Part shown: positions 47,848 to 59,108 of the stretch, piece after piece
Numbering within the stretch: position 1 is the first letter of the stretch
How the letters are laid out: the number at the start of each line of letters is the position of its first letter
Assembly (NCBI GenBank): GCA_017428525.1
Contig: JAFRQQ010000019.1
Coordinates: forward strand, 62,001-126,000
DNA length: 64,000 nt
Direction of reading: 5' to 3'
Source of the DNA: Clostridia bacterium
GTDB lineage: Bacteria; Bacillota; Clostridia; Oscillospirales; Acutalibacteraceae
The notes under the pieces: model-generated
What the model was told of the DNA's origin: nothing
Seen by the model: the letters and a program-made list of their open reading frames with translations, nothing else
The model's database searches: none
Translations under genes and position numbers: made by a program

Positions 47848-48122
47848 TAAAATATCTACTTGATATAGATAACGGGGGATGCGGATGTTCCCGGCGGATC
47901 GGCAGTCAGACAGTCACAAGAATGATATTTCCATTCCGGCCTCGCCGTGCGGCGCGGCTGTGCGTTGCAGTGCCCTTCGCGCCCTGCAGCGGTTCGTTTT
48001 TTCCGGAATATGACGGCAGGTTCCTTGTGCCAGGACGCGGGAATCTGCTGTTTTTTCTTTTTCGCATTTTTCACTCTGAATTCATTATCGCAAGACCCGA
48101 ACGCTTTGAAGGGGGCAGAAAC

Positions 48123-51100
48123 ATGAAAACAATGAATAGACTCCATCGGGCTGTGAGCGTGCTGCTGGCGCTCGTCATGGTGCTCACCATGGCGCCGGCC
48201 ATGACGCTTTCGGCTGCGGCGCTCGATTTTGCGCCTGTGGTGGTGATCGAAGACCCCACGGTGCTGATCGAGGCAGAAATCACGGATGACCCTCAGATCG
48301 TGATCTATACCACGGTCAACGACAACAATCCGCGGATCGTCATCGAGGCGCATGTGAACGAGCCGGAATGGAGCTATCCGCCCGAGGCCTATGACACCAG
48401 CTGGAGCGGCCTGGGGACCGAGGAGAATCCCTTTATCATCAAGACCGGCTCGGGGCTGGATCTGCTCAGCAAGCTCGTGTCGATCGGCGTCACCTTCAAC
48501 GGCGCTTATTTTGCGCTGCAAAGCGACATCACCGTGGGCAACGTCTGCAGCGAAGAGCTCGGCAGCTGGACGCCCATCGGCGACTGCTATCATCCCTTCG
48601 CGGGCAAGTTTGACGGCCGCGGCCACACGATCAGCGAGCTGTATATCAACGGCGGCGACTATCTGGGCCTCTTCGGCGTGCTGACCGGCACGGTCAGCAA
48701 CCTGAACGTCAGCGGCTCGGTCTACGACGGAGAGCGGTGCGGCGGCGTCGTCAGCGACAACAACGGCGTTATCTCCAACTGCACCTTCGCCGGCTCGGTC
48801 ACCGGCACGGTGAAATACGTCGGCGGCATCACCGGCTTCAACAACGGCACGATCGAGGACTGCACGAATTACGCAGAGGTCTGCAGCCCCGGCGAGCAGG
48901 GCGGCGGCATTGCCGGCCGGCAGCACAGCGGCTCGATCACCAACTGTGTGAACAGGGGCAAGATCATTTCGGCCTACAGTGACGCCGGGGCGTACGGCGG
49001 CACGGATACCGGCGACGGCGGCACCGGCGGCATCGCCGGGATCGCGGCGGGCGGCACCCTTTTCGACTGCCAGAACTACGGCAGCATGGTCTACGGCAAG
49101 CACGCCGGCGGCATCGTCGGCCAGGCGCGGATCCCGATCAGCAACTGTGAAAATTACGGCAACATCAACCTTTATCAAAGCCGCGGGCCTGTGGGCGGCA
49201 TCGTCGGCAGCAATAACGTTTCCAACGCCGATATTTCAGACTGCGCCAACTACGGCAATCTGAGCTATAAGAATTTTGCGACCGACGTGGGCGGCATCGT
49301 CGGCCTGAACGGCAGATCCAAGGTTCTCCGCTGCGTCAATGAGGGCCATATTACGGGCTGCAAGGAAGTCGGCGGCATCGCCGGATACAGTGACGGACGG
49401 ATCGCCGACTGCGTCAACAACGGCGCGGTCGAAGGCAACAACTACGGCAACCAGTGCTTCACCGGCGGCATTGCCGGCCGCGCGGGAGAGATCACCCGCT
49501 GCCTGAACACGGGCTACGTTGCCGCATACGGTGTGAATTCAAGCAATAATCAGGGCGTTGATGCAGGCGGCATCGTCGGCGATATGGAATCCAACGGCGG
49601 CGGCGTCAGCTACTGCTGCAACACCGGCCACGTCATGTCCTACGATGTAACGGGCGGCATCGCCGGCAGGCTGGTCAACAACGCGACGATCCGCAACTGC
49701 TATAACACCGGCCGGATCAGTACGACGACGAATGATGACGGCGACGAGGGAACAGAAGTCGGCGGCATCGTCGGCTACAGCTGGAATGCCTATATTTACG
49801 ACTGCTTCAACACCGGCAGTGTTGAGGGCCGTAAACACATCGGCGGCATCGTCGGCTTTACACAAGACGCTTCCGTGAAGAACTGCTACAGCTGCGGCAC
49901 GGTCGAGGGTGACGATAACGTCGGCGGCGTGATCGGCCGCCGCAGCGTGGATAACGCAAACTCTGCTTACAATCTTCTTGAACGCAACTATTACTATTCC
50001 GAGGACGAGGATCTGGGCCCCGTCGGCTACTCGACCGACACGATCTTTGCCGACGAAATCAGCCGCATGACCCAGCACGAGCTGCGTTACGGCGGGCCGC
50101 AGACCTACGTCAACTGGGATTTTGATACGAACTGGTATATGACGGATAACGGCCCCCGCCTTTACGGCGTTTCCGTCGGCGCGCCAAGCGGCGTCTATCC
50201 GGTCAACAACGTGAAGGATCTCAAAAAGCTGCGCGATCTCATCAACACCGGCATTGAATATAAGGGCGTCACCGTGCAGCTGATGAGCGACCTCGATCTC
50301 AGCGGAGAATCGAACTGGACGCCCATCGGCGGCACCGCGCGGAACGAATTCGCCGCGTTTCAGGGCGTTTTCAACGGCAATCATCACACGATCTCCGGGC
50401 TGACGATCGACGACAATGATGAGAATCTGGGCCTGTTCGGCGTGGTCAAGGGCACGATCAAAGATCTGCGGGTCGAGGGCAGTGTCGAGGGTTCCTCCCC
50501 GGTGGGCGGCATCGTCGCGCTGCTTGACGGCGGCACGATCGAAAACTGCTCCTTTATCGGCGCCGTCAAAGGCACTGCGGTCGTCGGCGGCGTCGTCGGC
50601 GTCATGCGGCTGGGCGCTGTGCTGCGCGGCTGCACCTGCGCGGCCGACGTGACCGGCTCTGCGAGCATGACCTCGAGCGGCAACGAATCCTGCGTCGGCG
50701 GCCTTGCCGGCATGGCGTTCAACGACTGTCTGATCGAAGCCTGCGCCTTTGACGGCGGTACGGTCTCGGGCGGCAGCTGCACCGGCGGCCTGGTCGGTCA
50801 GCTCTCGAACGCAGAAATACAAAACTGCTTCCACAGCGGCGACGTCAACGGCCATACCGGCAGCAACGTCGGCGGCGTCGTGGGCTACGCAGGCAACTCC
50901 GGCGTGATCAGCTACTGCGCGCATTACAGCGGCAGCGTTTCCGGCTACCAATACGTCGGCGGCGTCGCGGGCCACGCGACCAGGGACTACAGCGCAGGCT
51001 CAGGGAATAACTACAACCTTCATTACAACTTTTATCTCAGCGGCACGGTCGCGCGCTACGACAGCCTCGGCAACGTCGACGCCACGGACAGAGGCATCGG

Positions 51101-54100
51101 CGAACAGGTGTCCGCCGGGTTCGGCTCCAGCATCCAGTCAAACATCAACCCTTCGGGCGCTGCAGAGCCACTGACGCTCAACGAGTTCCAGGTGTGGTCA
51201 AGCTTCCGGCACTGGGATGACGACGTCTGGGCGATGGCGGCCGATTATCCGGTGCTCAGAAACGTCTATGAAACCGTGACCTTCCACGCCAACGGCGGCG
51301 ACGGAACGATGAACGATTTCGCGATCCCTGCCTTCGGCGGACCGCTGCCCGACTGCGCGTTCAGCAAGTCCGGCGAGGCGTTTATCCTGTGGAACACCGC
51401 CGCGGACGGCAGCGGCGACTGCTATCTGCCGGGCGACAAGGTCCCCGGCGATCAGTCGATCGACCTCTACGCGATCTGGTCGAAGAAAGAGGACGTCACT
51501 TATATCGATACGAATGGTCAGCAGAAAACCGCGGCGAACTGCGTCGGGCTGACCAGCAGCCTCTCCCGGCTGCGCACGGGCTGGTATTTCTCCGACGGAA
51601 TCGTCACGTATGATCGGCGCGTCGAGATCGACGGCGACGTCAATCTCATTCTCAAGGATAACACGACTCTGACTGAGCTGATGGGCATCCACGTGCCGAG
51701 CGGCAGCTCCCTGACGATCTGGGGGCAGGCGGGCGCCTATGCCGTGCCCGACTCCGACGCGGTGACGCAGGGCAAGGGCACGATGGACGTGCGCAATATC
51801 CTGCCCGGTTCGGGGCTGAATTACGACAACTGCGCCGCGCTCGGCGGCAACGCCGGCGAAGTACCCGGTGCGATCGCCATCAACGGCGGCGTGATCAAAG
51901 CGCTGGCGGGCAACGGCGCGGCGATCGGCAGCGGCGAGGGCTCGAACGGCAACGAAGTGATCATCCGCAACGCCTGCGTCACTGCACGGAGCATGGGCGG
52001 CGGCTCCGCGGCGATCGGCGGCGGCATGAACGGCAGCGGCGGCCGCGTGGAACTCATCGACAGCTATGTCAGCGCCGTCGGCAACACCGTCGTCTTAAGC
52101 AGCAAGACCTACGCAAGCCCCGGCATCGGCGCGGGCGTCAAAGGAAATACGGAAGAGAGCGTCAGCGCGACCGTGGGCATCATCAATTCCTGGGTGCATG
52201 CCGAAGCCGGCGACGCCAGCGAAGCCGGCGATAACGGCGTTGCGGCATGCGCCATCGGCACGAGCAAAGCGGCTGATTTCGATCTCGGCTGGATCTATCC
52301 GATCTCGCACGTGCGCGCGGTCGACGAAAACGACGCGCCCGTCACGCAGGATCTGATCCCCTATATGTGCACGCGGCAGAGCGTGGATCTCAAGCCCTGC
52401 ACCTTCCACGTCGGCTGCGCGGACAATCTCCAGAAATGCCGGTACTGCGGCATCACGAGCGCGAGCGGCGTGCATTTCGTCGTCTGCGATTACAACTACA
52501 ACAATTCTCCCGCGCCGTTCTCTTACGGCACGGAGGACGGCGGTTCCTTCGAGATCACCGACAACATCATCGGCGCGCAGAACGCCGTTTTCAAGTGCTG
52601 GAGCACCAATCAGGACGGCTCGGGGACCCAATACTTCCCCGGCGATTCGATCACACCCACAGGCGAAATGTCCCTGTACGCGCAGTGGACCGCGAAAAAG
52701 CCGGTCGTCTATGTGGATGAAACAGGCAGCGAGCAGACCGCAACGGCAACCGTGCTGACACAGGCGGACACCGTGCTTTCCGACGGCTGGTATGTTTGCG
52801 AGGGCGCGCTGAACTTCAGCGGCCGCATCACAGTGAGCGGCGACGTGCATCTGATCCTTGCCGACGGCTGCAGCCTTGTCGCGAATACCGGCGTGTGCGT
52901 GCCCGAGGACGCGAGCCTGACGATCTACGGGCAGACCGCGCGCAACGCTTCCACACAGACCGTCGGCACCGGCGTGCTGCACGCAAAGAGCGGCAGCAGC
53001 CAGCACGCGGCGATCGGCGGCAACCGGAGCGGTGTGGCCGGAACCATCACGATCAACGGCGGCATCATCGCCGCCGAGGGCAGCTACGGCGCAGGCATCG
53101 GCGGCGGCGACGTCGGCACCTGCGGCACGGTCAACGTCAACGAAGGCCTTGTGATCGCCACCGGCGGGTACGGCTCCGCGGGCATCGGCGGCGGCGGTTA
53201 CTCGAGCGGCGGCACGGTGAATATCCGCGGCGGCTTCGTCTTCGCGACCGGCAGCGTTTACAGCGACACGAATCAGGCGGCGCCCGGCATCGGCGCCGGC
53301 CGGCCGAGAGTCAACGGCTCACAGCCGCTGTTCCCCGGCAGTGTGAATATCACCGGCGGCACCGTGGTCGCCATGGCGGGCGTCGTTTCCGGCAGCGGCA
53401 CCGGCGCGCAGGCGATCGGCGTGAACCTGGCCGACACTGCGAACGTGCTCTGGAACTCGCTTTCGATCGCCAACGGCATGCGCGTGACCGCGGGCAATAC
53501 GGAAGAAACCGCCGAAATCAGCCTGTATGCAGATCGTGTGGCCGCCTGCCGCATGCAGTTTGCGAAGATCGAGCCCTGCGCGGCGCACACGCCGAACGCG
53601 GACAACGAACCGCCGTGCATCCACTGCGGCCTGAATTATGAAGTGCCGCCCGCACCGGCGACGCCGCCCGTGGTCACCGCGCACTCCCTGAGCCTGAACG
53701 GCGATATCGGCGTGAATTTCTACGCGGAGGTGCCGCAGGCGACGGCCGACGTTTACGCGACCTTCACTGTGGACGGCAAGACCGTGCAGACGCCGATCGA
53801 TCTGAATAATTTCAAGATGAGCGGCGAAACGAAGCAGTATAAATTCACCTGCAGCGTCGCCGCGGCGCAGATCGATACGCCGATCACAGGCAAAATCGTC
53901 AACGGCGCGGCGCAGAGCGAGGAATTCACCTATTCCGTGCAGACCTATCTGACCGAGGCACAGCAGACGATGGCGGACAACGCGGCGTTCATGGCGCTGG
54001 CAGGCAGCCTTGCCACCTACGGCTACTACGCAAACGCGCTGTTCAGCTACAACGACGGTTTCACGCGGCACGCCCTGTTTGACGACAGCGGCTTCGCGGC

Positions 54101-54581
54101 CGTCACGGCGGCGTCCCTCGCGGATTATGAAGAGGAAATACGGGCCCAAGAAAACGCCGTGATCTACGTCGGCACAAGCCTCGTGCTGCGCACCGAAACG
54201 GCGATCCGCCACTACTTCAGGCTGCCGGCGGGCAAGACGGTCGACGATTACCGCTTCCTCTGCCGGGACACCAAAGACGAAACGATCGACATCACGCCGG
54301 TCCGGAGCGGCAGCTATTATTACGTGGAGATCCCGAATATCGAATCGGCGAACCTCGGCAGCATCTGCACCCTGGCCGTGGTGCCGGACGTCAGTACGTC
54401 GCAGGAAGCGCAGGGCCAGAACGCCCGCTGGAAGTATTCCGCGATGAGCTATGTGCGCAAGGCGCTCGCGCGGTATGAGGCGAACGATCCGGCGATCAGC
54501 GACGAGCTCGCCAACGCCGTCAAGGCGCTGACGCTCTACTACCAGGCGGCGGACGCCTATTTCTCCCTCATCAACGCGTGA
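48123..54581 (+). CDS. Giant secreted GLUG/InlB-repeat surface protein
   Basis: A 2152-residue exported protein. A signal peptide occupies about residues 1-35 (SVLLALVMVLTMAPAMTLSA). Two blocks of GLUG-type repeats (GGIVG...G.I..C.N.G), a beta-solenoid motif, cover about 140-630 and 680-985. Then a unit is present twice: an InlB B-type repeat (FHANGGDGTMNDFAIPAFGG near 1055; the second near 1460) followed by a Gly-rich beta-solenoid with LTI(W/Y)GQ and AAIGG. A C-terminal domain starting LSLNGDIGVNFYAEVP (about 1860 to end) recurs in clostridial surface proteins but has no known role. No LPXTG or SLH motif. I start at the ATG at 48123 with AGGGGG upstream, not at 47922, because the signal peptide follows it. 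A role in adhesion is likely by family only. Confidence 0.85.
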   Translation: MKTMNRLHRAVSVLLALVMVLTMAPAMTLSAAALDFAPVVVIEDPTVLIEAEITDDPQIVIYTTVNDNNPRIVIEAHVNEPEWSYPPEAYDTSWSGLGTEENPFIIKTGSGLDLLSKLVSIGVTFNGAYFALQSDITVGNVCSEELGSWTPIGDCYHPFAGKFDGRGHTISELYINGGDYLGLFGVLTGTVSNLNVSGSVYDGERCGGVVSDNNGVISNCTFAGSVTGTVKYVGGITGFNNGTIEDCTNYAEVCSPGEQGGGIAGRQHSGSITNCVNRGKIISAYSDAGAYGGTDTGDGGTGGIAGIAAGGTLFDCQNYGSMVYGKHAGGIVGQARIPISNCENYGNINLYQSRGPVGGIVGSNNVSNADISDCANYGNLSYKNFATDVGGIVGLNGRSKVLRCVNEGHITGCKEVGGIAGYSDGRIADCVNNGAVEGNNYGNQCFTGGIAGRAGEITRCLNTGYVAAYGVNSSNNQGVDAGGIVGDMESNGGGVSYCCNTGHVMSYDVTGGIAGRLVNNATIRNCYNTGRISTTTNDDGDEGTEVGGIVGYSWNAYIYDCFNTGSVEGRKHIGGIVGFTQDASVKNCYSCGTVEGDDNVGGVIGRRSVDNANSAYNLLERNYYYSEDEDLGPVGYSTDTIFADEISRMTQHELRYGGPQTYVNWDFDTNWYMTDNGPRLYGVSVGAPSGVYPVNNVKDLKKLRDLINTGIEYKGVTVQLMSDLDLSGESNWTPIGGTARNEFAAFQGVFNGNHHTISGLTIDDNDENLGLFGVVKGTIKDLRVEGSVEGSSPVGGIVALLDGGTIENCSFIGAVKGTAVVGGVVGVMRLGAVLRGCTCAADVTGSASMTSSGNESCVGGLAGMAFNDCLIEACAFDGGTVSGGSCTGGLVGQLSNAEIQNCFHSGDVNGHTGSNVGGVVGYAGNSGVISYCAHYSGSVSGYQYVGGVAGHATRDYSAGSGNNYNLHYNFYLSGTVARYDSLGNVDATDRGIGEQVSAGFGSSIQSNINPSGAAEPLTLNEFQVWSSFRHWDDDVWAMAADYPVLRNVYETVTFHANGGDGTMNDFAIPAFGGPLPDCAFSKSGEAFILWNTAADGSGDCYLPGDKVPGDQSIDLYAIWSKKEDVTYIDTNGQQKTAANCVGLTSSLSRLRTGWYFSDGIVTYDRRVEIDGDVNLILKDNTTLTELMGIHVPSGSSLTIWGQAGAYAVPDSDAVTQGKGTMDVRNILPGSGLNYDNCAALGGNAGEVPGAIAINGGVIKALAGNGAAIGSGEGSNGNEVIIRNACVTARSMGGGSAAIGGGMNGSGGRVELIDSYVSAVGNTVVLSSKTYASPGIGAGVKGNTEESVSATVGIINSWVHAEAGDASEAGDNGVAACAIGTSKAADFDLGWIYPISHVRAVDENDAPVTQDLIPYMCTRQSVDLKPCTFHVGCADNLQKCRYCGITSASGVHFVVCDYNYNNSPAPFSYGTEDGGSFEITDNIIGAQNAVFKCWSTNQDGSGTQYFPGDSITPTGEMSLYAQWTAKKPVVYVDETGSEQTATATVLTQADTVLSDGWYVCEGALNFSGRITVSGDVHLILADGCSLVANTGVCVPEDASLTIYGQTARNASTQTVGTGVLHAKSGSSQHAAIGGNRSGVAGTITINGGIIAAEGSYGAGIGGGDVGTCGTVNVNEGLVIATGGYGSAGIGGGGYSSGGTVNIRGGFVFATGSVYSDTNQAAPGIGAGRPRVNGSQPLFPGSVNITGGTVVAMAGVVSGSGTGAQAIGVNLADTANVLWNSLSIANGMRVTAGNTEETAEISLYADRVAACRMQFAKIEPCAAHTPNADNEPPCIHCGLNYEVPPAPATPPVVTAHSLSLNGDIGVNFYAEVPQATADVYATFTVDGKTVQTPIDLNNFKMSGETKQYKFTCSVAAAQIDTPITGKIVNGAAQSEEFTYSVQTYLTEAQQTMADNAAFMALAGSLATYGYYANALFSYNDGFTRHALFDDSGFAAVTAASLADYEEEIRAQENAVIYVGTSLVLRTETAIRHYFRLPAGKTVDDYRFLCRDTKDETIDITPVRSGSYYYVEIPNIESANLGSICTLAVVPDVSTSQEAQGQNARWKYSAMSYVRKALARYEANDPAISDELANAVKALTLYYQAADAYFSLINA

Positions 54582-54710: not shown

Positions 54711-57700
54711 ATGAAACAAACGAAAAAACTGCTTTCGCTTCTGCTGGCCTTGACGCTGGTGCTCGGCACGATAGCGGTCGGCTTCGGCGGTCTGCCGCTG
54801 CGGTCTTCTGCGGCGGGCAGCGGCAAAGCAATCCAGCTCGTGACCGACGGCACGGCGGCGAACCTGCCCGGCGCGCAGCAGAGCAACGTGTATTTCGGCA
54901 ATTACAAGCAGTCGAGCAACGGGGCGGGCGACTTCAACGTCGATCCGATCAAGTGGCGCGTCCTTTCCAACGCGGACGGGAAGCTTTTCCTGCTTTCGGA
55001 TCAGAATCTGGACGCGATGCAGTATTACTCCGAACAGGATGTGATCGTGAACTGGGAATACTGTATTATCCGCCCATGGCTGAACGGCGACTTCTTCAGC
55101 GCGGCGTTTTCCGACGCCGAACAGGCGGCGATCCCGGAAGTCGTCGTCATAAACGACGACAACCCGTTCGAGGACTCTGATGGCGGAAACAACACCACGG
55201 ATAAGGTGTTTCTGCTTTCCATCGACGAGGCAATGAAGGAAGCGTACGGCTTCCCGAACAATGCTGACCAAGAGGCGGCGATCCGTCAGGCGACCAATAC
55301 CGACTACGCGAAGGATCGCGGTGTTAAGACTTACAGCAACGGATACGGCGTATGGTGGCTGCGCTCTCCCGGCGGCGTGGGCTTGGTCGCTGTGTCTACC
55401 GTCATGGACGACGGCAGGGTGGACTACGTCGGCGCCCTTGTAGACCATACTGATATCGCAGTCCGTCCCGCTATGAACGTGGATTTGAGCAAGGTTCTCT
55501 TCGCCTCCGCCGCCGTGGGCGGCAAGGCGGGCACCGGGCTGACGGCGGTCGGCGATTATGACGGCGCCGACTGGAAGCTGACGCTGCTCGATGAGAGCCG
55601 CAGCAGCTTCACCGCATCCGCGGCACGGCTGGGCGACGAATGGAGGATCATCTACAGCGGCGCAGCGACCGGCGAAAATGAAAGAATCTCCGCGATGATC
55701 GTCAACAGCGACGGCGAGGCGACGTATTATGGCGTGCTCAGCTACGCGCAGACCGGCACGAACACGGTCACGCTCAACACCGCCGGCAAGCTGAACGAGC
55801 GCGACAAGCTTTACGTTTTCAACGAGCAGGTGAACGCCGCCAATCAGACCGATTTCGCGAGCGCGCTCGTCGAGATCACCGACGCGCCCGTATTTCATGA
55901 GATCCCCAAATGCGACCTTGCCACGCTGAACGACGGCGATTACTGGTTCGATATCCAGAGCCTGCTGAAGGATGAAAACATCAATCCTTCGAAAGATGTG
56001 TACAATTTTCTTCAGAATTATTCTTTCTTCTATGTCAGTGAGGACGGCAGCTCGGCGCTGATCAAAGAACGCACCTCTTTCCTGCATGAAGAATACATTG
56101 AGCACACCTACACCGCCAGGGACGCGCGCTTCGCCTATCTGAAGCAGCACGTCAAGACTGCGTGCGACGACGTCCTGTTCACGGAGGAATTCGAGAGCAA
56201 TCCAACGGGCTGGACCTACGTTGACGCTGACAACGACGGGTACAACTGGAAATTTGAAACCGTCGACCTCAAGTATAAGATTGTCTGCAGCACGCATTCC
56301 GGACTGGGCAGGCTGTATTCGGAATCCTATGTAAACGGCCATGGGGCTCTGACCCCCGATAACTGGGCGATCACGCCCGCCATCGTCATTCCGGAGGAAG
56401 ACAAAGACGTGACGCTCACCTTCTGGGTGACGGGGCAGGAACCCGGTGCATGTGCAGAGCACTACGGCGTCTACGTTTATGAGGCGGCGGATCCCGCCGC
56501 GCCGGCGCTGCCCGCCGGCAAGCCCGCCGACTATATGAAGACGAAGCTCATGGAACAGACCGATGACAGAGGGAAAGAGTTCACGGAGATCACGGTCGAT
56601 CTGAGCGCCTACGCGGGCAAGACGGTGTTCCTGGCCTTCCGGCATTTCGACTGCACCGATCAGTACCAGCTGAGTCTTGACAGCGTTACGGTCATGGGGT
56701 ATCACCACACCTACGGCGATACCGGCGCCGACCGCTACACCTGCACGGTCTGCGGCGCCTTGAATGAGACGCGCAAGGCTGCCATCCTGGTCGATCCCGG
56801 CCTGACCGTCACGGTTTCGTCCGCAACGGTCTATCACGGCCGGACGGCGATCGTCACCGCCAACCTGCCCGCGGACGCGACCGGCACGGTCGATTTCGCG
56901 CTCGAGGGTCAGGATATCGACATCGTTTATCCCATTACAGGCGTGCCCCTTTGGAACGGCAGTGCGACGGTCAGCGACGACGTTTATGACGTCGGCAACT
57001 ATCACGTGAAAGCAAAATACAGCGGCGACGATAAGTATAAGGCTGCGGAGGCAGAGGCGTATCTGGCGGTGATTCGAAATGAGTTTGCGCTCGATCTGAC
57101 GATGCAGAACGGCGATTTTACCATTCCGTACGGGCAGCCCGCAGTCGTGATCGTGACGATCCCCGAGGACGCCACGCATCAGGCGCCGGCAAGCGGCGAT
57201 ATCACCCTGACGCTGAATGGGAGCGCGGTGGGCACATATGATGCGGAGAACGGCGTTCTGGCGTTTGATTTCACCGAGAACGAGAAGCTGGCGCCGGGCG
57301 ATTATACGGTGCATGCCACCTATAACGGCGATGCGCATTATGCCCCGCAGGAAGACGAAATCACATTTGTCGTGACAGAGGCGACGCCGAAGATCATGAT
57401 CGCGGCAGAGCCGCTGGATGAAGTCGGCACTGCGTATGCGGTCGCGATCACGAAGCCGGAGGATGCCGTGGGACACGTCACGCTCCACGTGAATTACAAC
57501 GGGGAGGAGAAAGACGTCCGCGTTTGCGCTGCAGAATTCTTCGAAGACGGTGTTTTCAGCTTCAACTTCCCGGAAGATATTCCGGAATGCGTCGGGCTCA
57601 CCGGCGAATTTACGTTGACCGCAGATTACAACGGCAGCAACGATCCGAATTATACAAACAACAGCGATGAGATTACGATCCGGCTCGGCTGCGACCACGT

Positions 57701-59108
57701 CTGGAACGAGCCGGCGTGGAACTGGGAGGATGACGTTGCGCACCCGACTTATTATGCGGAATGCTCGAAATGCGCCGACGGCAAAGCCGAAGGCAGCGTG
57801 GAGAGCGTGCCCGGCACGCGCGTGGCAGCGACCCTGAATGAAGACGCTTACACGCCCTATACCGCCCAGGTCGTGCTCGGCACGCAGACCTTCACCAGCG
57901 AATATAAGGATTACGAGCCCGGCACGATGCACCAGGCCCGTGCGGATGCGCTTGAAGACTATAAAACGGACCTGATCGAAACAGCAGAGTCCAATGCGCA
58001 GGCCGGCGACAGCGAAAAGGTGCAGGCACTGATCGCCGCCGCAGTCGAGCGGATCAACGGCGTGACCTATGATCCGGACTTGTCGCTCGATGAGAACAAG
58101 CAGGCCGCCGACAACGCCGCGAATCTTGATGCGCTGGCCGATGCGCTGACCGATCAGCGTGCTGCTGACGGCGCGGAGAAAGTCATCGACGAGATCGGCG
58201 AGGTCGAATACACCGACGAGAGCAAGAGCAGGATCGACGCGGCCCGCGCAGCTTTCGACGCGCTGACGCCGGAGCAGCAGGCCCTGGTGCCCGATGAAGT
58301 GAAGCAGGCGTTGGAGGATGCGGAAGCCGATTATCAGCTGCTCGAAGACAAAGCGGCGTTTGAGGACTACAAGGATGCGGTGAAGGCCGCCGCCGACGCG
58401 CTCGGCAAGGCGGATGACAGCGAGAAAACCGCCGCCTTGATCGAGAAAGCGAAGAAGGCGATCGACGATCTGCCCTATGACGAGAACGCGTCGCTTGACG
58501 AAAACAAGCAGGCCGTTGACGATGCCGCAAACCTGCAGCAGCTCACGGCCGGTCTGGATGATCAGCGTGCTGCCGACGCGGTGGAAAATGCCATCAACGA
58601 CATCGGCAACGTGGCGCTCACTGACGAGAGCAAGGGCAAGATCGACACGGCGCGCGCCGCTTATGACGCGCTGACCGACGCGCAGAAAGCGCTCGTGCCC
58701 GACGAGGCAAAGCAGGCGCTGACCGACGCCGAGCAGGAATATGCCGACCGGGAAGCGTTCGAGGAATACAAGGAAGAAAAGAAAGCCGCGCTTGACGCGC
58801 TTGCCAAGGAGGGCGACAGCGCCGCCGCGCAGCAGATCATCGAGGACGCCAAAGCCGAGATCGACGCGCTGGAATACGACGATACCAAGCCGCTCGAGGA
58901 GAACAAAGCCGCGGTCGACGCCGTCGTTGACAAGACGGAACCGGCGCTTGACGAGCAGCGCACCGCGGATTGCCCGCTCTGCGGCAAGGGCCATGAAAAC
59001 GGCTTCTTCGACAAGCTCCTCGGCGTCTTCCACAAAGCGCTCTACTATCTGAATCGTTTCGGCATCATTGCCATCAAACTGCTTGTGCAGCTGATTATGA
59101 AGTTCTGA
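54711..59108 (+). CDS. Giant secreted multidomain protein: DUF6273-like, adhesin-like, Ig-like and helical repeats
   Basis: A 1465-residue exported protein. Signal peptide about 1-34. Residues 40-270 match the DUF6273 pattern (YFGNYKQS, WRVLSN, LDAMQYY, WLNGDFF, YGVWWLRSPGG, VRPAMNV). At about 485-665 a jelly-roll like the cleaved-adhesin domain follows (FTEEFESNPTGW, LTPDNWAITPAI). Ig-like repeats cover about 685-995 (ATVYHGRTAIVTANLPADAT). From about 1080 three helical repeats of roughly 110 residues resemble FIVAR-like rods (AARAAFDALTPEQQALVPDE). The tail is DCPLCGKGHENGFFDK plus an amphipathic hydrophobic helix. AAGGAG lies about 9 bp before the ATG. No LPXTG; the tail may be the anchor. 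Confidence 0.85.
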   Translation: MKQTKKLLSLLLALTLVLGTIAVGFGGLPLRSSAAGSGKAIQLVTDGTAANLPGAQQSNVYFGNYKQSSNGAGDFNVDPIKWRVLSNADGKLFLLSDQNLDAMQYYSEQDVIVNWEYCIIRPWLNGDFFSAAFSDAEQAAIPEVVVINDDNPFEDSDGGNNTTDKVFLLSIDEAMKEAYGFPNNADQEAAIRQATNTDYAKDRGVKTYSNGYGVWWLRSPGGVGLVAVSTVMDDGRVDYVGALVDHTDIAVRPAMNVDLSKVLFASAAVGGKAGTGLTAVGDYDGADWKLTLLDESRSSFTASAARLGDEWRIIYSGAATGENERISAMIVNSDGEATYYGVLSYAQTGTNTVTLNTAGKLNERDKLYVFNEQVNAANQTDFASALVEITDAPVFHEIPKCDLATLNDGDYWFDIQSLLKDENINPSKDVYNFLQNYSFFYVSEDGSSALIKERTSFLHEEYIEHTYTARDARFAYLKQHVKTACDDVLFTEEFESNPTGWTYVDADNDGYNWKFETVDLKYKIVCSTHSGLGRLYSESYVNGHGALTPDNWAITPAIVIPEEDKDVTLTFWVTGQEPGACAEHYGVYVYEAADPAAPALPAGKPADYMKTKLMEQTDDRGKEFTEITVDLSAYAGKTVFLAFRHFDCTDQYQLSLDSVTVMGYHHTYGDTGADRYTCTVCGALNETRKAAILVDPGLTVTVSSATVYHGRTAIVTANLPADATGTVDFALEGQDIDIVYPITGVPLWNGSATVSDDVYDVGNYHVKAKYSGDDKYKAAEAEAYLAVIRNEFALDLTMQNGDFTIPYGQPAVVIVTIPEDATHQAPASGDITLTLNGSAVGTYDAENGVLAFDFTENEKLAPGDYTVHATYNGDAHYAPQEDEITFVVTEATPKIMIAAEPLDEVGTAYAVAITKPEDAVGHVTLHVNYNGEEKDVRVCAAEFFEDGVFSFNFPEDIPECVGLTGEFTLTADYNGSNDPNYTNNSDEITIRLGCDHVWNEPAWNWEDDVAHPTYYAECSKCADGKAEGSVESVPGTRVAATLNEDAYTPYTAQVVLGTQTFTSEYKDYEPGTMHQARADALEDYKTDLIETAESNAQAGDSEKVQALIAAAVERINGVTYDPDLSLDENKQAADNAANLDALADALTDQRAADGAEKVIDEIGEVEYTDESKSRIDAARAAFDALTPEQQALVPDEVKQALEDAEADYQLLEDKAAFEDYKDAVKAAADALGKADDSEKTAALIEKAKKAIDDLPYDENASLDENKQAVDDAANLQQLTAGLDDQRAADAVENAINDIGNVALTDESKGKIDTARAAYDALTDAQKALVPDEAKQALTDAEQEYADREAFEEYKEEKKAALDALAKEGDSAAAQQIIEDAKAEIDALEYDDTKPLEENKAAVDAVVDKTEPALDEQRTADCPLCGKGHENGFFDKLLGVFHKALYYLNRFGIIAIKLLVQLIMKF

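What the first reader, a model, noticed from the sequence alone, without database searches (positions are those of the whole stretch)
58965..59108. C-terminal CPLCGKGH plus amphipathic helix as a possible anchor
The second giant exported protein ends DCPLCGKGHENGFFDK, then a hydrophobic-amphipathic helix (VFHKALYYLNRFGIIAIKLL). It has no LPXTG, SLH or choline-binding motif. A Cys-x-x-Cys-Gly-x-Gly-His box right before a terminal membrane-seeking helix looks like a sorting or processing signal, possibly for a metal-dependent or cysteine-based attachment.
Basis: partly seen in the sequence, partly recalled or inferred. Interest (0 to 1): 0.5.

Follow-up and report, generated by a model that had tools for sequence, protein, structure and literature searches.

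The report
Zinc-knuckle helical tail on surface proteins
The end of this giant secreted protein is one copy of a short, undescribed, portable tail (a predicted metal-binding loop joined to a greasy helix) that gut Clostridia append to many unrelated exported proteins, probably to hold them on the cell membrane.

Summary
In detail: ORF 54711-59108 ends CPLCGKGHENGFFDKLLGVFHKALYY...IMKF. It is not unique to this protein. The tail sits at the extreme C-terminus of secreted proteins with many unrelated domains, with up to 40 matches per genome. In sampled genomes it is concentrated in a few lineages of mostly ruminant-gut Clostridia. No Pfam or NCBIfam family covers it, and no paper found prints it.

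Two results bear on mechanism. A knuckle-free version of the same helix (FFxKIxxFFRxLF) is more widespread and replaces the knuckle tail in close orthologues. The helix position that is His in knuckle tails (15 of 15) is Arg, Gln, Lys or another residue when the knuckle is absent (His in 1 of 82).

Best reading: an amphipathic helix docks the exported protein on the outer membrane face, capped by a C2H2-type metal clasp. Sortase-like processing and cysteine-based attachment are disfavoured. Metal binding and localisation are inferred, not measured.

The parts
54711..59108 (+). Giant exported protein (1465 aa) that carries the tail
   Evidence: no frame interruption
54711..54815 (+). Signal peptide region (MKQTKKLLSLLLALTLVLGTIAVGFGGLPLRSSAA); cleavage point approximate
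   Evidence: read from the sequence; same MKxxKxxLSxLLA style as the consensus of other tail proteins
54975..55484 (+). DUF6273 domain
   Evidence: Pfam PF19789, E 1.1e-25
56181..56693 (+). Cleaved_Adhesin / choice-of-anchor J domain
   Evidence: Pfam PF07675 E 9.9e-31; NCBIfam NF038128
57120..57377 (+). Bacterial Ig-like domain Big_3_5 (best of two stretches)
   Evidence: Pfam PF16640 E 2.9e-21
58971..58994 (+). Metal-knuckle half of the tail: C1421-x2-C1424-G-x2-H1428
   Evidence: conserved columns in A1, A2 and A4
59004..59060 (+). Amphipathic helix (FDKLLGVFHKALYYLNRFG, aa 1432-1450)
   Evidence: AlphaFold2 helix 20-38 of the 53-aa model, mean pLDDT 82.5; hydrophobic moment up to 0.60
59031..59033 (+). 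H1441, fourth conserved residue (predicted metal ligand) on the helix
   Evidence: invariant column in A1, A2 and A4; coupled to the presence of the knuckle
59064..59102 (+). Extra C-terminal hydrophobic helix of this subfamily (IAIKLLVQLIMKF region)
   Evidence: AlphaFold2 helix 40-52; present in the paralogue on contig C12 and in the G001 copies, absent from canonical tails

Best explanation
The tail is a portable C-terminal docking module for proteins exported by Sec. Its core is a basic, Phe-rich amphipathic alpha-helix of about 20 residues. After export this helix inserts in-plane into the outer face of the cytoplasmic membrane and keeps the protein on the cell, in the way the C-terminal helix of E. 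coli PBP5 does. In the version seen here, a short knuckle just before the helix supplies Cys, Cys (or Asp) and His, and the helix supplies a second His. Together they bind one metal ion, most likely zinc, which pins the start of the helix and closes the end of the protein into a compact clasp. Shown by sequence: portability, C-terminal position, signal peptides, amphipathicity, and coupling of the four residues. Inferred: zinc, membrane binding, and absence of cleavage.
For: (1) Portability: 62 tail proteins match 49 Pfam families (LRR_5, M6, S8 and C1 peptidases, phosphoesterases, sulfatases); 23 from one genome match 21 families. (2) Position: 106 of 120 translated pattern matches lie within 20 aa of the stop; 49 of 49 profile hits in five genomes end at most 10 aa before it. 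(3) Export: signal-peptide-like N-termini in 61 of 64 and 41 of 45 complete tail ORFs, against 176 of 449 other ORFs, by my own heuristic. (4) Helix: predicted; mean hydrophobic moment 0.53 against 0.22 for shuffles, hydropathy below a typical membrane-spanning segment (19-residue Kyte-Doolittle mean 1.19), net charge about +2. (5) The helix alone is enough: knuckle-free tails are common (82 of 97 C-terminal hits read; the sample favoured genomes without the knuckle tail), and 8 of 14 readable orthologues at 62% identity or more carry one instead of the knuckle tail. (6) Four-residue site: His at the helix position in 15 of 15 tails with a knuckle and 1 of 82 without; Cys to Asp swap with both His kept.
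Against: No metal or membrane binding was measured. The AlphaFold model has no metal and its coordinates could not be inspected. The sequences are related, so the p-value overstates independence. Two knuckle-free tails carry His (L353; L045), and L133 has a knuckle with altered His spacing. The low copy number in some genomes and high number in others could equally reflect a dedicated partner that I could not look for. A basic aromatic helix could bind wall polymers or a receptor instead of lipid.
Confidence: 0.6

Rival explanations
1. A C-terminal sorting signal of the LPXTG, PEP-CTERM or MYXO-CTERM kind: the Cys box is recognised by a transpeptidase or protease, cut, and the protein is attached covalently to wall or lipid.
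For: Tripartite look (motif, hydrophobic stretch, final Lys/Arg): 59 of 69 canonical tails have at least one Lys/Arg in the last five residues. Many copies per genome on unrelated proteins and a patchy distribution. The first Cys is kept even in the Asp variant.
Against: The second Cys can be Asp; the module also precedes a catalytic domain at the N-terminal side; the motif is missing from close orthologues that keep the helix; the helix is amphipathic rather than membrane-spanning; sortase presence is unrelated to tail count.
Confidence: 0.17
2. A docking tag: the tail fits into a receptor protein on the surface, as dockerin fits cohesin, and zinc only shapes the tag.
For: Strong residue-level conservation (seven invariant columns in A4, partly imposed by the search pattern) is more than a membrane helix alone would need.
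Against: Knuckle-free helices with looser sequence are interchangeable with it in orthologues. No recurrent neighbouring gene was found in the loci.
Confidence: 0.12
3. A non-covalent cell-wall anchor: the basic helix binds anionic wall polymers.
For: Net charge about +2.
Against: The Phe-rich hydrophobic face and high hydrophobic moment point to lipid.
Confidence: 0.08
4. A redox or disulfide element (CPYC-like), or a membrane-active peptide released from the proteins.
For: CPYC resembles the glutaredoxin active site (recalled); basic amphipathic Phe-rich helices resemble antimicrobial peptides (recalled).
Against: Cys to Asp variants and two conserved His, and presence on many unrelated proteins within one genome.
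Confidence: 0.03

Closest known systems
C-terminal amphipathic membrane anchor of E. coli PBP5 (DacA)
   Same: Exported protein held on the outer face of the cytoplasmic membrane by a terminal amphipathic helix; the form without the last 18 residues is soluble (passages of PMC2909392).
   Different: PBP5's helix belongs to one enzyme family (recalled) and has no metal knuckle. Here the tail is portable across dozens of unrelated families and carries a predicted four-ligand clasp.
MYXO-CTERM / myxosortase
   Same: Short C-terminal tag with an invariant Cys before a helix, dozens of copies per genome (passages of PMC11980579).
   Different: MYXO-CTERM has a transmembrane helix and an Arg-rich end and is cleaved; here there is a second Cys or Asp plus two His, an amphipathic helix and no known processing enzyme.
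LPXTG / sortase and PEP-CTERM / exosortase sorting signals
   Same: Modular C-terminal tails on unrelated secreted proteins (passages of PMC1569441).
   Different: No LPXTG or PEP motif; sortases are present with or without the tail; the module also occurs N-terminally in one family.
C2H2 / zinc-knuckle metal sites
   Same: Two Cys and two His in a very short segment, one His on a helix.
   Different: Spacing C-x2-C-x3-H-x(11-12)-H matches no Pfam family above its cut-off and no PDB sequence below E 0.1; it is on exported proteins.

Membership tests
LPXTG sortase signal | LPXTG-like motif before a transmembrane segment | tested here: not met
   No such motif in the tail or in the tails that I aligned
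LPXTG sortase signal | Dependence on a sortase | tested here: inconclusive
   Sortase (PF04203) in 60 of 61 genomes irrespective of tail count; the one without, G618, has 14 tail matches. Dependence itself not testable
MYXO-CTERM / PEP-CTERM / GlyGly-CTERM type | Match to a curated C-terminal signal model | tested here: not met
   NCBIfam: 0 families for the 47-aa tail at E<=1; no such family among the 25 most frequent of 51 for 62 full-length proteins
MYXO-CTERM / PEP-CTERM / GlyGly-CTERM type | Cleavage by a dedicated intramembrane enzyme | not testable with these tools
   Needs whole-genome profiling or mass spectrometry
PBP5-like amphipathic C-terminal anchor | Signal peptide plus terminal amphipathic helix | tested here: met
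PBP5-like amphipathic C-terminal anchor | Membrane attachment lost when the helix is removed | not testable with these tools
   Experiment needed
C2H2-type zinc site | Conserved Cys2His2 (or Cys-Asp-His2) ligand set that appears together | tested here: met
   49 of 49 profile hits; His coupled to knuckle 15/15 against 1/82; Asp variants; exceptions L133, L353, L045
C2H2-type zinc site | Metal bound | not testable with these tools
   No metal data; Foldseek found no PDB match to the model
SLH / choline-binding / dockerin | Corresponding Pfam domain in the protein | tested here: not met

The most novel reading that the evidence does not exclude
These Clostridia run an undescribed, secretome-wide display system in which dozens of unrelated enzymes and adhesins per genome carry one interchangeable tail. 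The metal clasp acts as a switch: with zinc the helix is capped and the protein is held on the membrane, and without it the protein is released or re-sorted. The knuckle-free helix is the widespread form and the clasp was added in some lineages.
Probability: 0.3. Interest if true: 0.85.

Novelty: new variant of a known kind. Interest (0 to 1): 0.7.

Why it matters
How rumen and gut Clostridia hold their many surface enzymes is mostly described through LPXTG, SLH and dockerin anchors (recalled). A short tail found on up to 40 open frames per genome, absent from Pfam and NCBIfam, would let annotators predict localisation for a large set of uncharacterised proteins. It also makes a metal-clasped membrane anchor directly testable, and the knuckle-free orthologues give a natural experiment on what the clasp adds.

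Tried and rejected
Rejected ideas. (a) Chance motif: excluded. (b) Known family: Pfam, NCBIfam and PDB gave no match of the tail above a cut-off (the full-length scans list only 25 families each). Weak zinc-ribbon and other Pfam hits at E 0.05-0.3 are left as chance. (c) Tail replaces missing sortase: sortases in 60 of 61 genomes. (d) Conserved neighbour as partner: clustering of 920 ORFs from the loci found no recurrent non-tail family beyond shared domains and a few small synteny blocks. (e) Phage or plasmid origin: one incoherent viral match and no plasmid match for one tail. (f) Disulfide or redox: Asp variants.

Led nowhere: the AlphaFold model of the phosphoesterase was poor, pLDDT 46, and was not used. 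VIA-align had nothing to compare. Paper searches found no description of the tail; one search looked for five tail peptides as text and found 0 papers. Apart from the passages of three papers, only search listings were seen.

Results against my reading: in the order sample the motif is nearly absent. Of the 15 profile matches at E<=0.01 listed there, 11 are outside my own genome. Read, one (L041, another family) is a divergent knuckle tail, one (L045, another genus of the same family) is a knuckle-free tail that nevertheless has His, and the other nine are not tails. Of the 21 genus genomes, G011's match is no tail and G025's is a knuckle-free tail with His, which leaves 19 of 45.

Rows dropped: seven chance regex matches; three of 64 proteins (too short or with N), 11 internal or N-terminal hits of 108. 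The 110 hits read for (108 distinct) were the 30 loci returned plus 80 stretches that I picked from the matches listed, mostly from genomes without the knuckle tail, so the 15:82 ratio is not a frequency estimate. In some searches two orthologues above 62% identity (G007, G005) were fragments and were not read.

Full report
WHAT IS THERE. The ORF at 54711-59108 encodes a 1465-aa protein with a signal peptide, DUF6273, a Cleaved_Adhesin/choice-of-anchor J domain, two Big_3_5 stretches and a long charged helical region (the last is read from the sequence). It ends with the quoted tail. The other giant exported protein of the window (47922-54581) has no such tail.

The genome has three further copies: contigs C12 and C2 (E 1e-17 and 3e-14) and C9 (E 8e-7). 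In the genus, 21 of 45 genomes matched a profile at E<=0.01; two of these are not knuckle tails, leaving 19. Aligned tails share C-x2-C-x3-H-x(11-12)-H. Those alignments were partly seeded with that pattern, so I tested it on hits chosen by E-value: 49 of 49 in 40 stretches from five genomes fit it, and all end at most 10 aa before the stop.

DISTRIBUTION. Six I judge chance; the rest are MAGs titled Ruminococcaceae, Clostridiaceae, Clostridiales or Clostridia bacterium, many from ruminant gut by their titles. Via these loci, 33 of 34 genomes searched had matches at E<=0.001, up to 40 in one; the one without is the chance betaproteobacterial hit. Among 59 relatives of the richest genome (itself included), 10 had 12-34 matches, 4 had one and 45 none at E<=1e-6. 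In the class sample only the window's own genome matched, 1 of 391, with either profile. The tail is therefore concentrated in a few lineages. Their GTDB names are not given by the tools.

PORTABILITY AND EXPORT. The 62 full-length tail proteins scanned match 49 Pfam families, led by List_Bact_rpt, BspA-type LRR, M6 peptidases, DUF6273 and phosphoesterases. The 23 complete ones taken from one genome match 21 families. A simple signal-peptide heuristic of mine is positive for 61 of 64 and 41 of 45 complete tail ORFs, against 176 of 449 other ORFs from the loci. The heuristic is loose, so the contrast matters more than the rate.

THE HELIX IS THE CORE. After the knuckle the model shows a helix of about five turns and, in this subfamily, a second one. 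The helix is Phe-rich and amphipathic: mean moment 0.53 against 0.22 for shuffles in 71 tails, with hydropathy below that of a typical membrane-spanning helix. Orthologues of one tail-bearing phosphoesterase, read at their C-termini, show three states. Six (69-75% identity, and the query) have the knuckle tail. Eight (62-68%) have a knuckle-free amphipathic helix. Eleven at 51% or less end bluntly. Tail type follows relatedness, so few switches are needed. A profile of the helix alone, with the His position masked, matched 34 of 35 genus genomes, 19 of 28 relatives of the tail-rich genome that lack the knuckle tail, and 0 of 14 other family, order or class genomes. The knuckle-free form is thus the more widespread one.

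THE KNUCKLE AND THE HELIX HIS BELONG TOGETHER. Of 108 distinct helix hits read, 97 are C-terminal. With a knuckle, the helix position is His in 15 of 15. Without one it is Arg 42, Gln 13, Lys 10, Glu 6, Asn 5, others 5 and His 1 (Fisher p 1e-16, relatedness not corrected). In a natural subfamily the second Cys is Asp and both His stay: 15 of the 23 genus hits read, and more in other genomes. This pattern is expected of a metal site and not of a disulfide, a redox pair or a two-cysteine attachment signal. L133 (altered spacing), L353 and L045 are exceptions.

A MIRROR-IMAGE CASE. A secreted calcineurin-like phosphoesterase family carries the module right after the signal peptide, followed by about 300 aa of catalytic domain. 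A cut-and-transfer signal would separate the module from that enzyme; an anchor would not. The family adds one conserved Cys in the helix, so it may be specialised.

MECHANISM. I think the helix docks the exported protein in-plane on the outer face of the membrane, as the C-terminal helix of PBP5 does (PMC2909392, passages), and the metal clasp caps and stiffens its start. The sequence facts are shown; the metal, the membrane and the absence of cleavage are inferred. Sortases are present in 60 of 61 genomes with and without tails, and no recurrent neighbouring gene was found, so nothing points to a processing enzyme. A dedicated partner elsewhere in the genome is not excluded.

NOVELTY. No Pfam or NCBIfam model covers the tail (the frequency lists show only 25 families each). 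No PDB relative was found by sequence or fold. Searches of open papers found no description. Terminal amphipathic anchors are a known kind, so I file this as a new variant: portable and metal-clasped.

Noticed in passing
L341, L365, L369, L374, L375, L393, L396 (short stretches of G649, G650, G651, G652, G658, G660): Alpha/beta-hydrolase-like ORFs begin, at or near their first Met, with a helix of the same FF-x2-I-x2-FF type (e.g. MWEKIVAFFMSIIAFF), without an ordinary signal peptide; possibly N-terminally anchored esterases (the hydrolase label is my reading, not a search).
   Followed up: no
L157:4023-5141, L212, L170, L139, L095-L097, L122, L126: Secreted phosphoesterase family with the knuckle-helix module at the N-terminal side of the mature chain and an extra conserved Cys in the helix.
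   Followed up: partly
G665:C229, G621:C6, G619:C6, G648:C24 and many others: A sortase-domain match lies in a frame of about 500-700 aa in many of these genomes, longer than usual for a sortase (recalled).
   Followed up: no
L089, L090, L102, L128: Some tails are preceded by a further CxxC (e.g. GRCDECGICKWCG or CTRCGAHLIDLCPWCG), which could make a larger zinc-ribbon-like unit.
   Followed up: no
window 48123-54581 (+): Neighbouring giant exported protein with GLUG and Listeria-Bacteroides repeats and no C-terminal tail.
   Followed up: no
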